A DNA stretch of 64,000 nucleotides from Burkholderiales bacterium (GTDB taxonomy: Bacteria; Pseudomonadota; Gammaproteobacteria; Burkholderiales; Burkholderiaceae_B): NCBI GenBank assembly GCA_027484315.1, contig JAIXTE010000152.1, positions 1 to 64,000 on the forward strand, read 5' to 3'. How positions within the stretch are numbered: the stretch's first letter is position 1; each line of letters begins with the position of its first letter. A program made the translations under genes and the position numbers. Positions 6,912 to 48,251 of the stretch are shown piece after piece. Below the pieces are notes generated by a model that searched no databases, was not told the DNA's origin, and saw only the letters and a list, made by a program, of their open reading frames with translations.

Positions 6912-6939
6912 ATCTCCACGATTTGTAGCAATTGAATGA

Positions 6940-6971
6940 AGCACGTTGATGAATGTCAGCGTGCTTTTTTT
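6940..6971 (+). terminator. Rho-independent terminator after dksA
   Basis: AGCACGTTGA (6940-6949) pairs with TCAGCGTGCT (6956-6965) with one G-T wobble around a six-base loop. A run of T follows. Confidence 0.85.
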
Positions 6972-7047
6972 ACGCCAACTCAGCGCGAGTCGTGTGCAAC
7001 TCGTCGGCTTGTTAAAGCCCACTCAGCGCGAATTCCAGTCCCTCGCC

Positions 7048-7171
7048 AGAAAACCTTATAGTCCCTCTTTGAAATTCACATTGACTCAACCCACTCGACA
7101 AAACAGATGGTCGAGTGGGTTGTCGGCTTACAGCCGAACGTTGCATGTGAATTCAAACGGGCAGGTTTTCT
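7048..7171 (+). repeat. Structured repeat family 1, copy A-left
   Basis: The basal stem is AGAAAACCT (7048-7056) with AGGTTTTCT (7163-7171). Hairpin 1 is CAACCCACTCGAC (7087-7099) with GTCGAGTGGGTTG (7110-7122), a perfect 13-base stem with the 10-base loop AAAACAGATG. Hairpin 2 is TCGGCT/AGCCGA (7123-7137). An intermediate stem forms between TTTGAAATTCACAT and ATGTGAATTCAAA. Left subtype: hairpin 2 has a three-base loop. Confidence 0.85.
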
Positions 7172-7420
7172 TGAATGGCGGGCGACTGGAACATCGCTGC
7201 CGATTGGGCTGAAAACTGTCGGTGATGAATCGCGCGCTGTGGGCACTGATGCTGGCCCAGTTGGGGCGACCTTGGCACTCCGCGCTGAGTGGGCTGCTCA
7301 GTGTTGAAAAGCCTGCGCTGGTTGCTTGCCACCAGAGTGGCTCAAAAACGAGTTCCGCGCGCACGAACCGGCTTCTTCAAGGCCTTCCCGGCAGTGCGCT
7401 TGCCTGTGCCGCACATTCAG

Positions 7421-7556
7421 GAAAACCGCCCCGTTTGAACAAGGTTTGCATGCTCGCCGAGCGGTGAAACCGATGGCGACACATCAACCCGACCGTCTTT
7501 TTTGTCGGGTTGGTGTGAATGCAAAGCCTTGCTTCAAAAAGGGATCAGCGGTTTTC
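7421..7556 (-). repeat. Structured repeat family 1, copy A-right
   Basis: Same element in inverted orientation. The basal stem is GAAAACCGC (7421-7429) with GCGGTTTTC (7548-7556). Hairpin 1 is CAACCCGAC (7485-7493) with GTCGGGTTG (7504-7512) and a 10-base loop. Hairpin 2 is the longer right subtype, TCGCC (7454-7458) with GGCGA (7475-7479), enclosing CGGT-GAA-ACCG. The stem bases differ from A-left but still pair. Confidence 0.85.
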
Positions 7557-7636
7557 TGTGCGGAATCGGGCAAGGCACGCCGGGTAGGCCTGAACAGGAA
7601 GCAGGTTCAAGTCGCGCAGCGGGCACAGCCGCCGCG

Positions 7637-8530
7637 TCAGCCTTTCAACGCCAGCGCCCTGTCGTACACCGTGTTCTTGGCGAGGCCCGTCGCCTTCACC
7701 ACCACCGCCACTGCGGTTTTCAACGGCAGCTCGGCCAACAGCAACACCAGCCAGGTGTCCAGGTCCGCACTGGCCTGTGCGGAATCAGCATCCGCTGCAG
7801 ACAATGAAGAACCCGCGATCACCCAGGCCCACTCGCCCCGCTCGGCGTTGGGATCATTGCGAATCTGTTCAAACACGTTGTTTCCCAAGCCCCGGTAAAA
7901 CGTTTCAAACTGCTTGGTCAACTCTCGCCCCGCGCACATGGCGCGGTCACCTGCGCCTGCTGCCTCGAGGTCATCAAGCAGTTGCATCACCCGGTGCGGC
8001 GCTTCAAAAACAACCTGGGGTTCGGCACAGGCGAGCCAGCTTTTCAGGGCATCAAGCCGCCCCTTGCCCTTGGCGGGCAAAAACCCCCTGAAGGTAAATG
8101 GGCCTTCCACCAAACCACTGGCTGCCACCACCGCCAGCACACTGCTGGCACCCGGCACGGGCACCACCTTGAAACCAGCCTGCGCCACACGGCGAACCAC
8201 CACTGCGCCAGGATCGGAAACGGCAGGTGTTCCCGCATCGCTGACCAAGGCCACCGATTCGCCCCGTTGCAGGCAGGCCAGAATGCCCTCGGCACTGTCC
8301 TGCTCGTTGTGGGCATGGTGGGCCATCAAGGGCTTTTTAATGCCCAAGGCGTCCAGCATGCGGGCTGTGTTTCGGGTGTCTTCTGCAGCAATTCGGTCCA
8401 CCTGCTCCAGCACAGCGCGGGCGCGCAGGCTTAGGTCACCCATATTGCCGATGGGCGTTGCCACCACATAGAGTGAAGGTTCGCGCCGGGTTTCATCCCT
8501 TGCGTCAGAATTCAAGACAACCTTCACCAT
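7637..8530 (-). CDS. rsmI: 16S rRNA (cytidine-1402 2'-O)-methyltransferase RsmI
   Basis: SAM-dependent tetrapyrrole-methylase-fold enzyme that methylates the ribose of C1402 in 16S rRNA. Signatures are LYVVATPIGNMGDLSLRA near the N-terminus, EDTRNTARML, SDAGTPAVSDPG, VPVPGASSVLAVVAASGL and FRGFLPAKGKGR. ATG 8530 gives 297 residues, close to family length. Upstream in-frame starts (8554, 8596, 8707) would add non-conserved residues and overlap yraN, so I prefer 8530. The gene is divergent from yraN, and together with diaA and dolP it forms a locus conserved in many proteobacteria. Confidence 0.92.
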   Translation of the reverse strand: MVKVVLNSDARDETRREPSLYVVATPIGNMGDLSLRARAVLEQVDRIAAEDTRNTARMLDALGIKKPLMAHHAHNEQDSAEGILACLQRGESVALVSDAGTPAVSDPGAVVVRRVAQAGFKVVPVPGASSVLAVVAASGLVEGPFTFRGFLPAKGKGRLDALKSWLACAEPQVVFEAPHRVMQLLDDLEAAGAGDRAMCAGRELTKQFETFYRGLGNNVFEQIRNDPNAERGEWAWVIAGSSLSAADADSAQASADLDTWLVLLLAELPLKTAVAVVVKATGLAKNTVYDRALALKG

Positions 8531-8552
8531 TTCCACTTCACCGGCTTTCTGC

Positions 8553-9056
8553 ATGGCATTCACACCCAAATCCAAAGTTCCTGAATTGTCCGGCATTCCT
8601 TGGACCCCCAGCAAATCCCGAACACGAAAACCCAAAATTCCTTGGGCAGCGCCCAAAGAAACCCAGCTCACCCCGCCATCAAGCCCGAATGAATACAAAC
8701 TCGCCATACAGGCCCAAGGCAGGGAAGCAGAAACACGGGCACTTCGCCTGTTGGAATCAAAGGGGCTTGTGCTGATTGCACAAAATCACCGGTGCCGCTG
8801 CGGCGAACTCGATCTGATCATGGCACACGGCGATACCGCCGTGGTGGTGGAAGTTCGACAGCGCAGCAAAAGCCTTCACGGCAGTGCGCTTGAAAGTGTT
8901 TCAACCCACAAACAAAGCCGTGTAACACGCTGTGCAAAGCTGTGGTGGGTACAGCAGGGTCAACGCAAATTCACTCATCTGCGTTTTGATGTGGTTGCAT
9001 TGGAAAGCGACAGCGCACCGCAGTGGATACAAAATGCGTGGCAAATCAGCAACTAA
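8553..9056 (+). CDS. yraN: YraN / UPF0102 family nuclease-fold protein
   Basis: 167 residues. The UPF0102 core starts at about residue 54 with AQGREAETRALRLLESKGL. It continues with RCRCGELDLIM and VVVEVRQRS, the D...ExK-like pattern of the PD-(D/E)XK endonuclease fold found in YraN proteins. The 50-residue N-terminal extension, rich in Pro, Lys and Ser, is longer than usual (typical length about 120), and no better in-frame ATG exists, so a later non-ATG start is possible. Its biochemical role is unproven in the family. It is divergent from rsmI and upstream of diaA. Confidence 0.85.
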   Translation: MAFTPKSKVPELSGIPWTPSKSRTRKPKIPWAAPKETQLTPPSSPNEYKLAIQAQGREAETRALRLLESKGLVLIAQNHRCRCGELDLIMAHGDTAVVVEVRQRSKSLHGSALESVSTHKQSRVTRCAKLWWVQQGQRKFTHLRFDVVALESDSAPQWIQNAWQISN

Positions 9057-27016: not shown

Positions 27017-27124
27017 TGTGTGCTCCTGGGGTGCTGCGTTGGGGACTTATTGTACCGCGAGTGGAGGATATTGCTGACTCAGCGGGATGAGTTGCTGGCT
27101 TGGCGGGTTTGTTGGTCTTGCACA

Positions 27125-27249
27125 GAAAACCGCAGATCCCTTCTTGAATCAAAGCGCTGCATTCACACTGTTCCGACAAAACAGATGGTCGGAACGGTGT
27201 GTCGCCCACGGGGCGAACATTGGCACTTGATTCAAGCGGGGCGGTTTCC
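27125..27249 (+). repeat. Structured repeat family 1, copy B-left
   Basis: The basal stem is GAAAACCGC (27125-27133) with GCGGTTTCC (27241-27249), one mismatch. The intermediate stem is CTTGAATCAA (27143-27152) with TTGATTCAAG (27227-27236), perfect. Hairpin 1 is CACACTGTTCCGAC (27164-27177) with GTCGGAACGGTGTG (27188-27201), one wobble, with loop AAAACAGATG identical to A-left. Hairpin 2 is TCGCCC/GGGCGA (27202-27216). Confidence 0.87.
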
Positions 27250-27516
27250 TTGAAGTGCAAGACAAACAAATCCACTGCCAGGCCAACTCAACCACATCCG
27301 AGAGATTCACCAAGGCCGGAGCAACGCGCTGCAATGAGGGCTGGCGCACGCACCCTGAGGAGACTTCGATGAACAAGTCAGTCGGAGTCTTCGCTGGAAG
27401 GCTGGCTGATTCAAGAGGGATATGTAGCGCGAATGGGGCGACTGGTGAAGGTGGTACAGCTGGTACAACATTGGATTGGACTACACGGCAAAGGTTTTGC
27501 CTGTTCCGCATTTGAA

Positions 27517-27652
27517 GAAAACAGCCCCGCTTGAACAAGGCGTGAATGGTCGCCAGGCGGTGAAACCGCAAGCGACACCCGAACCCGCCGATGTGTTTTG
27601 GCGGGTTCGGGTGAATGAATCGCTTTGCTTCAAGAAGGGACTTGCTGTTTTC
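27517..27652 (-). repeat. Structured repeat family 1, copy B-right
   Basis: The basal stem is GAAAACAGC (27517-27525) with GCTGTTTTC (27644-27652), a compensated version of the GAAAACCGC/GCGGTTTTC stem. Hairpin 1 is CACCCGAACCCGCC (27576-27589) with GGCGGGTTCGGGTG (27600-27613), 14 perfect pairs and a 10-base loop. Hairpin 2 is the right subtype with GCGGT-GAA-ACCGC at about 27556-27569. Confidence 0.87.
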
Positions 27653-27691
27653 ATGCGGAAGCAGGCAAACCATGCTGCGGGGTCCAATCAA

Positions 27692-43335: not shown

Positions 43336-43461
43336 AGAAAGCCTGACATCCCCCTTGTTGCTGAATTCCACGACCTAAGCGCCTCCGCTAAAAAGCGGGC
43401 GGGCTGCGCTTTCGGCTTCCAGCCGAACGGACGAGGAACTCAACACAAGGGCAGGCTTTCT
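43336..43461 (+). repeat. Structured repeat family 1, copy E (left subtype)
   Basis: The basal stem is AGAAAGCCTG (43336-43345) with CAGGCTTTCT (43452-43461), perfect and different from the other copies. Hairpin 2 is TTCGGCT (43411-43417) with AGCCGAA (43421-43427), three-base loop. An intermediate stem pairs CCCTTGT with ACAAGGG. Hairpin 1 is diverged (AGCG-rich, AAAA loop). No right-type partner was found within 700 bases. Confidence 0.75.
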
Positions 43462-43582: not shown

Positions 43583-43763
43583 GGTGTTCGTTTGCTGCAT
43601 CATCTTGCCGATTCGGAGCAAGGCTTCCCGGCTGATTCGCGGCGCGGGGCGATTGCGCAAGCAATCGATGCGAAGACGCCATTGCGTTTCGCATTCCCCA
43701 AGCAAGAATCAACAAGACGGGAAATAAGCCTTGTCCAAGGCAAGATGAGCGGTAACGAACACC
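43583..43763 (+). mobile_element. MITE-like repeat family 2, copy 1 (181 bases)
   Basis: The ends are inverted: GGTGTTCGTTTGCTGC at the left and the complement of GGTGTTCGTTACCGCTC at the right, with CATCTTGCC shared further in. The interior also folds on itself (CGATTGCGCAAGCAATCG, ATGCGAA...TTCGCAT). It is about 95 percent identical to copy 2 by eye. It has no coding capacity. Confidence 0.8.
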
Positions 43764-45893: not shown

Positions 45894-47969
45894 ATGATGC
45901 CAATCCGCCCACCTCACGCCCTTCGCCTTGTTCCTGCAGCTTTGTTGTTTGCCCTTGCACAAGGTCACGTTCACGCTCAGGCCAATCTGGCCGATGTGGA
46001 AGTCAAGGCTCAACGTGAAGCGCTAAGCGCAGCCAATGTGCGCGTCGCCACTGAAAAACTGGAACAGATTCCCGGTGGTGCCGCGGTGGTGGATGCAAAA
46101 ACATTTGAGGCCGGCAAGGCAGTGACCATCAAAGACATGCTGGATTTCACACCTGGTGTGTTTTCTCAAAGCCGGGTGAATGAGGAATCGCGCTTGAGCA
46201 TTCGCGGATCAGGCCTGTCTCGTACATTTCACATGCGCGGCATTCGCCTGCTGCAGGACGGCATTCCGATCAACCTGGCCGATGGTGGCTCCGACTTCCA
46301 GGACATTGATCCGCTGGCCCTCCAACATGTTGAGGTTTACAAGGGTGCCAACGCGCTGCAATACGGCGCGGCCAGTCTGGGTGGTGCAATCAACTTCGTG
46401 ACCCCCACCGGCTACACCACGCCCAACAGCGTGGTTCGTGTGGATGCGGGCAGCAATGAATTTGCACGGGCACAGTTTAAAACCGGCGATGTGGTGGGCG
46501 ACTGGGATTATTTTGCGTCGATCTCCCAATTGCGCTCCGATGGATTCCGCCAGTTCAGCGGCCAGAAAAATAGCCGCTTGAATGCCAATGTGGGCCTGAA
46601 AATCAGCCCCCAGCTTGAAACCCGTTTTTACTTGATTCATGGCGACATGAATCAGGAACTGCCGGGCAACCTGACCAAGGCACAGATGCAGGCTGATCCG
46701 GCGCAGGCGAATACCACATCCTCCTCAAATAACTCTCAGCGCGACTTTTTGATAACTCGAGTCGCAAACAAAACCACGTGGATATCTGCAAATGGTACCG
46801 AGTACAACTTTGGTCTGTATGCAGTAAACAAAAATCTTTATCACCCCCTCACATTTCCCACAAGCTCTGGTCAGAGAGCGCTCATTGACCAACAAAATCG
46901 AGATATCGGCCTTTTTGGCAATCGGATTGCTCAAGGTGAATTGTTTGGCTACAGACACGATACAACTGTTGGATACAACTACGTCAAAGGTGTAACTGAA
47001 AACAGAACCTTTGATCACACCAGAGGGATCAGAACTCGACTTGATGCATATGATGACCAGAAGGCGAGAAACATTGAACTTTACGGTGAAAGTCGCTTGC
47101 ACACCACCGATACATTTCAGCTAATCTCTGGCTTGCAATGGACCCATTCCAAACGCACTTCTGATGATCAAATTGTAGGTCCAGGTAACGGAGATGCCAG
47201 CTACGAGCGTCGCTATGCTCAATTCAGCCCAAAGGTGGGTGTACTGTGGAAAGCAGCTGAAAACGTTCAAATCTACAGTAACCTGAGTCGCGCGTTTGAA
47301 CCTCCAACATTTTCCGAAACTAGCCCTGTGCGCGCTTTGGAGGCACAAGAGTCCACTACATTTGAAGTCGGTTCGCGCGGCAACCTGAATGACATTCGTT
47401 GGGATATCAGTGTTTACAACAGCCGACTGAATAACGAGTTTGTAACCTATCAGTTGCCGGCCATGCAACCCGCCATTTTGAATGCCGACAACACACGCCA
47501 CCAGGGCGTTGAAATTGGATTGACTGGTCCTTTTGCAAAAAATGCACTGTCGCAAGGTGACAAGCTGGACTGGACACTGGCCTACACATTCGGTCGCTTC
47601 CGCTTCGACAATGACAGCGTGTACGGTAATGCTGCCATTCCCGGCATTCCTGAAGAGTACGTTCGCGCAAAACTCGATTACACGCACCCCAAGGGCTGGA
47701 CCGTTTCCCCAAATCTGGAATACGTGCCACAGGGTTATTTCGTGGATCTGAGAAACACCTTCGCCAGCGACCCATACCTGCTAGTGGGGCTGAGTGCCTC
47801 TTACAAAGCGAGTGAGACACTTCGCTTCTTTGTGGATGGAAGAAACTTGACTGACAAAAATTATGCTGCGACAACTGGTGTGGTCATTAACGCTGGTGGA
47901 GCAGATGTCGCCCAATTTGCTCCGGGGGAAGGCCGTAGCGTGTTTGCAGGCGTGGAAGTGAAGTGGTAA
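45894..47969 (+). CDS. TonB-dependent outer-membrane receptor (FecA-type siderophore receptor)
   Basis: 691 residues. The signal peptide ends HVHAQANLADVEV. The plug domain includes KTFEAGKAVTIKDMLDFTPGVFSQSR and LSIRGSGLSRTFHMRGIRLLQDGIPINLADGGSDF. The barrel ends LRFFVDGRNLTDKNYAATTG. This resembles siderophore receptors of the FecA/FoxA kind; the ligand is unknown. A RegA-type box lies in its upstream region, and a PepSY membrane protein gene faces it from the other side. Confidence 0.92.
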   Translation: MMPIRPPHALRLVPAALLFALAQGHVHAQANLADVEVKAQREALSAANVRVATEKLEQIPGGAAVVDAKTFEAGKAVTIKDMLDFTPGVFSQSRVNEESRLSIRGSGLSRTFHMRGIRLLQDGIPINLADGGSDFQDIDPLALQHVEVYKGANALQYGAASLGGAINFVTPTGYTTPNSVVRVDAGSNEFARAQFKTGDVVGDWDYFASISQLRSDGFRQFSGQKNSRLNANVGLKISPQLETRFYLIHGDMNQELPGNLTKAQMQADPAQANTTSSSNNSQRDFLITRVANKTTWISANGTEYNFGLYAVNKNLYHPLTFPTSSGQRALIDQQNRDIGLFGNRIAQGELFGYRHDTTVGYNYVKGVTENRTFDHTRGIRTRLDAYDDQKARNIELYGESRLHTTDTFQLISGLQWTHSKRTSDDQIVGPGNGDASYERRYAQFSPKVGVLWKAAENVQIYSNLSRAFEPPTFSETSPVRALEAQESTTFEVGSRGNLNDIRWDISVYNSRLNNEFVTYQLPAMQPAILNADNTRHQGVEIGLTGPFAKNALSQGDKLDWTLAYTFGRFRFDNDSVYGNAAIPGIPEEYVRAKLDYTHPKGWTVSPNLEYVPQGYFVDLRNTFASDPYLLVGLSASYKASETLRFFVDGRNLTDKNYAATTGVVINAGGADVAQFAPGEGRSVFAGVEVKW

Positions 47970-48251
47970 AGCCTTGAGCGGTGTTCGGTTGCTGCATTAT
48001 CTTGCCGATTCAGAACAAGGCTTCCCGGCTGATTCGCAGCGCGGGGCGATTGCGCAAGCAGTCGATGCGAAGACGCTATTGCGTTTCGCATGCCCCAAGC
48101 AAGAATCAACAAGACGGGAAATCAGCCTTGTCCAAGGCTAGATGAGCAGCGACGATCACCGAACAAAGTCTGCGCAACGAAAGTCTTGGTCACGACTAGA
48201 TGAGCAGCAACAAACACCAGGCAAGGACCGCGCATCCAACGCGCGGCAAAC
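47970..48251. other. Gene-free stretch filled by repeat family 2
   Basis: 282 bases directly after the TonB receptor. It holds the second 181-base repeat copy and a further end-like copy (GATGAGCAGCAACAAACACC at about 48200-48219). No gene is visible. Confidence 0.6.
47980..48160 (+). mobile_element. MITE-like repeat family 2, copy 2 (181 bases)
   Basis: Identical length to copy 1 with about 95 percent identity by eye. The left end is GGTGTTCGGTTGCTGC and the right end is GATGAGCAGCGACGATCACC. It begins 11 bases after the receptor stop codon. Confidence 0.8.

What the first reader, a model, noticed from the sequence alone, without database searches (positions are those of the whole stretch)
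27125..27652. Structured repeat family with compensatory base changes in five copies
Copies at 7048-7171, 7421-7556, 27125-27249, 27517-27652 and 43336-43461 share a fold: a basal stem, an intermediate stem, hairpin 1 with a 10-base loop beginning AAAA in four copies, and hairpin 2. The basal stem is AGAAAACCT/AGGTTTTCT, GAAAACCGC/GCGGTTTTC, GAAAACAGC/GCTGTTTTC or AGAAAGCCTG/CAGGCTTTCT, pairing intact each time. Hairpin 1 stems are entirely different sequences yet perfect or one-wobble complements. Retention of pairing with changed bases suggests selection on structure, RNA or single-stranded DNA, rather than a simple duplicated repeat.
Basis: seen in the sequence. Interest (0 to 1): 0.8.

Follow-up and report, generated by a model that had tools for sequence, protein, structure and literature searches.

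The report
Paired giant DNA palindromes between genes
Limnobacter bacteria carry about 60 pairs of large DNA palindromes, mostly where two genes end facing each other; they seem to have entered these junctions in one ancestor, stayed there, and kept their fold while their letters changed.

Summary
The five copies belong to a dispersed family of long palindromes: 92 covariance-model matches in the window's own genome, matches in 12 of 15 same-genus (Limnobacter) relatives, none in 44 genomes of other genera.

G-U pairs are about as rare as A-C mismatches, so pairing is kept at DNA level, or equally on both strands, unlike a one-strand RNA. Units lie mainly tail-to-tail between genes, at the same sites in different species (59 of 60; 23 of 24); in three element-poor relatives the same neighbours mostly abut (15 of 22). 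Except between close species, copies within a genome resemble each other more than their orthologues, so compensatory changes are not independent.

Best reading: a REPIN/BIME/YPAL-like palindromic element that inserted in a clade ancestor without a recognisable RAYT transposase, is now immobile and retained, and probably acts as a DNA hairpin-pair boundary at gene 3' ends. The function is inferred.

The parts
7041..7178 (+). Unit 1, left half: CTG-type palindrome (core; outer arms continue to about 7016 and 7209)
   Evidence: R1 match 118.1 bits; fold z -7.97; arms read
7413..7564 (-). Unit 1, right half: CGC-type palindrome, convergent with the left half
   Evidence: R1 match 147.3 bits; fold z -6.66
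6912..7636 (.). Whole junction holding unit 1, between two convergent genes (the right one a tetrapyrrole-methylase/RsmI-like gene, 7637-8707 minus)
   Evidence: gene calling, Pfam, orthologues
27117..27257 (+). Unit 2, left half: CGC-type
   Evidence: R1 match 136.8 bits; fold z -6.53
27509..27659 (-). Unit 2, right half: CGC-like (GGGGCTGTTTTC); the homotypic exception, also at the orthologous site L205 in G009
   Evidence: R1 match 120.1 bits
43329..43468 (+). Unit 3, left half: CTG-like palindrome
   Evidence: R1 match 80.4 bits; fold z -5.30
43593..43751 (-).
   Evidence: R2 match 187.6 bits (this copy is one of the 21 from which R2 was built); fold
47990..48148 (-). D-type palindrome without a detected partner, between convergent ORFs ending at 47969 and 48252
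   Evidence: R2 match 181.6 bits (also in the model set); ORFs

Best explanation
A non-coding paired palindromic DNA element. A unit holds two palindromes of about 200 nt pointing at each other, mostly of two unlike types, and fills about 540-780 bp between the stop codons of two convergent genes. (1) Shown: among the genomes searched it is found only in Limnobacter and is abundant only in one clade; sites are shared across that clade; the same junctions are mostly near-empty in element-poor relatives. Inferred: a burst of insertion in the ancestor of that clade, by an unknown, possibly single-strand, mechanism. (2) Shown: the sites have since been almost perfectly kept while sequences turn over in concert within each genome. 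Inferred: gene conversion between copies through the conserved basal arms. (3) Shown: Watson-Crick pairing and asymmetric bulges are kept, without a clear G-U preference. Inferred: the working form is a DNA hairpin or cruciform, maintained by selection, arm-to-arm conversion, or both. (4) Inferred and least certain: each half faces the 3' end of a neighbouring gene and the pair acts as a boundary there, by blocking read-through or convergent transcription, or by anchoring a protein or DNA topology.
For: Family and distribution. Convergent pairs only, 50 of 50 neighbouring pairs in G009. Tail-to-tail 41 of 59 units in G009 and 31 of 48 in G000, between divergent genes 1 and 1. Shared sites 59 of 60 and 60 of 62 (at least one flank matched); 23 of 24 in L. 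alexandrii. Near-empty junctions in G004/G014/G015, 15 of 22 at 42 bp or less (estimated). Element-rich genomes form one clade on a one-region tree. Concerted evolution. No clear G-U excess. Covariation with controls.
Against: No protein, transcript or phenotype was seen. Arm-to-arm conversion or block exchange could preserve pairing without selection on the fold. The test for replaced terminators was significant against all length-matched controls (16 of 225 against 26 of 152, p 0.004) but not against convergent controls (3 of 37, p 0.74). About a third of units lie between co-directional genes. Three of 22 element-free junctions are 389 bp or longer. At the 7.0 kb site the left gene keeps its own terminator-like hairpin beside the element. 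G-U equals A-C is also expected if RNA folds on both strands.
Confidence: 0.55

Rival explanations
1. A structured RNA (small RNA or 3'-UTR element) is transcribed from each copy and selection acts on its RNA fold.
For: Strong shared fold and covariation; 3'-end location.
Against: G-U about equal to A-C, where structured RNAs tolerate G-U far more (general knowledge, not tested here); no Rfam match in the window; block exchange explains part of the covariation.
Confidence: 0.12
2. Bidirectional transcription terminators: each convergent gene reads first into a half in plus sense, which ends in GGTTTTCTTG, and folding on both strands explains the lack of a G-U excess.
For: Tail-to-tail location and pair orientation; plus-sense T-run in the CTG and CGC consensus; fewer ordinary terminators before elements than in all controls.
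Against: No difference from convergent controls; the D consensus has no T-run at its plus-sense end; the hairpin is far larger than ordinary intrinsic terminators (general knowledge).
Confidence: 0.2
3. Non-functional relics: old insertions whose symmetry is preserved only by template switching or conversion between arms, without selection.
For: Concerted evolution, block exchange, no G-U or A-C preference.
Against: Near-total retention of sites across species; asymmetric bulges and loop bases stay conserved, which symmetry repair alone would tend to erase.
Confidence: 0.2
4. A REP/REPIN family moved by a RAYT (Y1) transposase.
For: Inverted doublets forming hairpins with compensatory changes are described for REPINs (PMC3116915, abstract and 12 passages read).
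Against: Y1_Tnp absent in 15 of 15 same-genus relatives; the own genome has two matches. Palindromes of about 200 nt against the 20-40 bp given for REPs in the abstract of PMC3733652 (search listing only). Almost no turnover of sites.
Confidence: 0.05

Closest known systems
REPINs (REP doublets; PMC3116915, abstract and 12 passages read)
   Same: Inverted pair of palindromic units as the working entity, extragenic, hairpins with compensatory changes.
   Different: About ten times larger; usually two unlike halves; mostly at gene 3' junctions; sites fixed; no Y1 transposase in the relatives.
BIMEs of enterobacteria (recalled; named in passages of PMC2267715)
   Same: As recalled: mosaics of different palindromic units in alternating orientation near gene 3' ends, with suggested gene conversion and gyrase or IHF binding.
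   Different: Units here are about 200 nt with a branched two-hairpin plan and no detected sequence relation (Rfam and collection searches negative); binding not tested.
YPAL/RU-2 of Yersinia (PMC2229807, section 11 and passages read)
   Same: Intergenic palindromic element of similar size (about 168 bp).
   Different: YPAL is described as recently mobile with filled and empty sites between close strains; here sites are fixed, paired and heterotypic.
CIR repeats of Caulobacter and Brucella (passages of PMC2229807)
   Same: Intergenic repeats whose drawn structure has two arms, conserved across species.
   Different: CIRs carry the GANTC methylation motif; not searched for here. No convergent-pair rule is mentioned in the passages read.

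Membership tests
REP/REPIN | Associated Y1 (RAYT) transposase | tested here: not met
   PF01797: 0 of 15 same-genus relatives; two matches in the own genome, not tested for RAYT type
REP/REPIN | Short palindromes (20-40 bp) in inverted doublets | tested here: not met
   Inverted doublets yes (50 of 50 neighbouring pairs), but palindromes of about 200 nt
BIME | Different palindromic units combined in opposite orientation, near gene 3' ends | tested here: met
   CTG with CGC, D or minor types, convergent; 41 of 59 tail-to-tail in G009
BIME | Gyrase, IHF or Pol I binding (recalled) | not testable with these tools
   Needs binding data
YPAL-like mobile palindrome | Filled and empty sites between close strains | tested here: not met
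   59 of 60 and 60 of 62 sites shared between G000 and G009; near-empty sites seen only in the element-poor outer species
Structured RNA family | Covariation with G-U tolerance on one strand | tested here: not met
   Covariation met; G-U about equal to A-C
Structured RNA family | Match to a described family | tested here: not met
   Rfam gathering search of the window: 0
Intrinsic terminator | Hairpin followed by a T-run | tested here: inconclusive
   T-run in the CTG and CGC plus-sense consensus, none in D; depletion test mixed
Integron attC-like site | Recombination core sites and an integrase | not tested
   No integrase search was made

The most novel reading that the evidence does not exclude
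A new kind of bacterial DNA element: a unit of two unlike giant DNA hairpins that inserted, by an unseen single-strand mechanism, at junctions of abutting convergent genes, was then domesticated as a fixed genome-wide boundary system whose hairpins are continually re-dealt by gene conversion, and whose interior can take in gene cassettes (cell-wall amidase plus companion).
Probability: 0.25. Interest if true: 0.82.

Novelty: new variant of a known kind. Interest (0 to 1): 0.62.

Why it matters
Palindromes of this size are expected to be unstable, yet here about 60 pairs per genome are kept at the same gene junctions across a clade while their sequences are replaced in concert. This is a natural system for separating selection on a DNA fold from conversion that merely preserves symmetry, and for testing whether convergent gene junctions profit from a physical boundary. 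It also warns that compensatory changes in repeat families can be mistaken for evidence of RNA structure.

Tried and rejected
RAYT/REPIN origin: no Y1_Tnp in 15 of 15 same-genus relatives. Plasmid or phage origin: no match to unit 1 in either collection. An autonomous form with a transposase between the halves: in the long-spacer units looked at, Pfam showed amidase-like genes or unknowns, no transposase. SbcCD loss as a special licence for palindromes: TIGR00619 gave no match in 16 of 16 Limnobacter genomes (controls ring in 13 of 14), but only 3 of 60 genomes in the relatives set pass the curated cut-off and 23 of 60 have any match, so the lack is not distinctive.

Terminator depletion: significant against all length-matched controls, not against convergent ones. 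Replication orientation: in G009 the CTG type reads towards the origin in 33 of 45 clear cases (p 0.0025) or 34 of 49 with further cases (p 0.009) when the terminus is put at the midpoint (counts tallied by hand); GC skew places it nearer 1.9-2.0 Mb, which gives 31 of 45 (p 0.016) or 32 of 49 (p 0.044). A hint only. Spacing: no departure from uniform (p 0.30).

A first orthologue table was discarded because partner elements contaminated the flanks; redone with masked flanks. One search selected no sites (threshold too high), redone. The type regex left 12 of 237 cores unclassified. Two short hits of the 27 were not examined.

Literature: Limnobacter with repeat, intergenic and palindromic gave one paper, unrelated by its title; Limnobacter with inverted repeats and repetitive gave none. 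The library holds open-licence papers only.

Full report
WHAT IS THERE. The five copies exist at the stated places. Each folds with z -5.3 to -8.7 and 0 of 200 shuffles as good. MAFFT plus RNAalifold on 31 copies of the own genome gives 33 pairs, 22 with double-sided changes. A covariance model (R1) finds 92 matches in the own genome, a 4.04 Mb draft in 155 contigs, and 92 in the single-contig relative G009; both lists come from 150 scored candidates. In a search of 60 genomes (own, 15 of the same genus, 44 of other genera), 12 of the 15 and 0 of the 44 have matches (stricter filters). Rfam gave nothing in the window.

ANATOMY. The palindrome is longer than reported: outside GAAAAC...GTTTTC the flanks pair further, with arms conserved by type or private to a copy. 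Two main types share the core, named here by the bases after GAAAAC: CGC and CTG. A third type, D, has another sequence but the same plan of a long stem with asymmetric internal loops and two hairpins (63 pairs on 21 copies). It was found because 'single' CTG copies had about 300-500 bp of unexplained sequence on one side. In the window the 43.3 kb copy pairs with a D at 43593-43751, and another D lies at 47990-48148. D has matches in the own genome (27), G009 (30), 11 of 15 same-genus relatives and 0 of 44 others.

PAIR RULE. In the loci first analysed, 93 pairs closer than 700 bp were all convergent (the set includes orthologues, and one entry, L182, is an overlapping chimera). Over the elements listed for G009 (92 R1, and 27 of 30 R2), 50 of 50 neighbouring pairs were convergent (30 R1/R1, 20 R1/R2); 19 of 119 were unpaired, six of which form three convergent pairs 1.3-1.7 kb apart. 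Two same-strand neighbours within 700 bp exist (L254 and L231). Of 31 R1/R1 pairs in G009, 22 are CGC with CTG, one is CGC with CGC, none is CTG with CTG, and eight involve a minor or unclassified type. The homotypic exception is the finding's own 27.1 kb unit and its orthologue L205.

POSITION. With a simple codon-usage gene caller, units lie tail-to-tail in 41 of 59 cases in G009 and 31 of 48 in G000, and between divergent genes in one and one (3 and 12 units at locus edges set aside). An earlier redundant set gave 82 of 128 tail-to-tail and 0 divergent. Sites are shared: 59 of 60 units of G000 have an orthologous unit in G009, and 60 of 62 the other way, at least one flank matching. In the more distant L. 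alexandrii, 23 of 24 sites with sequence (of 37 sites) match a G009 site, 21 on both flanks, flanks 73-89% identical. Type order is mostly kept at orthologous places: 141 concordant CGC or CTG comparisons against 20 discordant, with 29 involving other types set aside (tallied).

GAIN. The three element-poor genomes G004, G014 and G015 were searched with 3' ends of 14 genes that face a pair in G009 (14 of 17 tail-to-tail pairs that passed a gap filter). I examined 25 of 27 hits; in 22 the convergent neighbour was found. Its stop is, by extrapolated alignment, at most 42 bp away in 15 of 22, 84-187 bp in 4 and 389-1062 bp in 3, where G009 has 542-776 bp. At the 7.0 kb site G004 has a short junction with a terminator-like hairpin, while G014 and G015 have a reading-frame-like insert and no long palindrome. 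A tree of one 0.9 kb region puts the ten element-rich genomes it holds in one clade, the split supported at 1.000, with G004, G014, G010 and G015 outside (midpoint rooting; G002 dropped as too short, G013 not included). With none in 44 other genera, gain on the branch to that clade is the simplest account; G004 and G014 have a few matches (2 and 4).

CONCERTED EVOLUTION. With both flanks matched and 80-84% identical, orthologous cores are 72% identical while the best other copy in the same genome is 88%; the orthologue was closer in 9 of 153 rows. With flanks 88-93% identical it was closer in 25 of 45 rows, and above 93% in 15 of 24. Rows are not independent, and for most genomes only part of the copies was in hand. 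At the 7.0 kb site, hairpin 2 of the CGC copy is a different cassette in G009, and a MAG (L140) has wholly different hairpins between the same basal arms. Compensatory cells therefore include inherited or converted blocks.

DNA OR RNA. On the fitted alignments, Watson-Crick / G-U / A-C cells are 3600/98/91 and 4281/58/95 (the sets share some loci) and 2041/48/37 for D, where a pair whose commonest form is U-G gives 26 of the 48. Structured RNAs tolerate G-U far more than A-C (general knowledge, not tested here). Equal rarity fits a DNA hairpin, arm-to-arm conversion, or RNA needed on both strands. Controls: A4 95.5% paired against 80.6% shuffled, 30 pairs with double-sided changes against 14-19 when slid; D 96.0% against 89.1%, 38 of 53 pairs against 11-16 when slid.

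FUNCTION. Retained sites and kept bulges argue for use; position argues for a 3'-end boundary; in a tail-to-tail unit each gene meets one half in the same sense. The test for replaced terminators is mixed: 16 of 225 against 26 of 152 length-matched controls (p 0.004), but 3 of 37 convergent controls (p 0.74). The CTG and CGC plus-sense ends have a T-run; the D consensus has none. An orientation bias relative to replication is a hint.

KNOWN KINDS. It works most like a REPIN or BIME: inverted doublets of palindromes with compensatory changes. By the tests made it is not a REPIN: no Y1 transposase in the relatives, far larger, fixed sites. YPAL (PMC2229807, section 11 read) is similar in size but described as recently mobile. 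Two paper searches found no description in Limnobacter (open-licence library only).

Noticed in passing
L201:414-1365, L112:2029-3097, L247:2726-3888, L271:1214-1944, L091:2595-2945, L082:1655-2556: A few units have 1.1-1.5 kb between the halves, holding small genes: NlpC/P60 in L201 and L112, Peptidase_C92 in L247, DUF3828 in L271, no Pfam hit in the L082 frame tested. At one shared site (L050 and L146 without, L091, L112 and L201 with) the cargo is present in some species and absent in others. Possible antibacterial effector and immunity cassettes (guess, recalled).
   Followed up: partly
window 6966-7031; outer edges of G009 units: Degenerate tandem repeats of the outer arm (about 43 bp spacing in the window; up to three copies of about 35 bp in L196) flank the units, as if the outer arms had been duplicated.
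   Followed up: no
G000 contig ends, e.g. C82, C137, C50, C114, C35, C73, C9: Many copies lie within about 200 bases of a contig end in the own draft, so the assembly breaks at these elements and the copy number is a lower bound.
   Followed up: no
L160:5748-5876 (L. parvus) and L182:5281-5506: Chimeric single palindromes that begin as one type and end as the other, as expected from recombination between the two halves of a unit.
   Followed up: no
all 16 Limnobacter genomes: No SbcD (TIGR00619) match in 16 of 16, while controls ring in 13 of 14; but 37 of 60 genomes in the relatives set also lack any match.
   Followed up: partly
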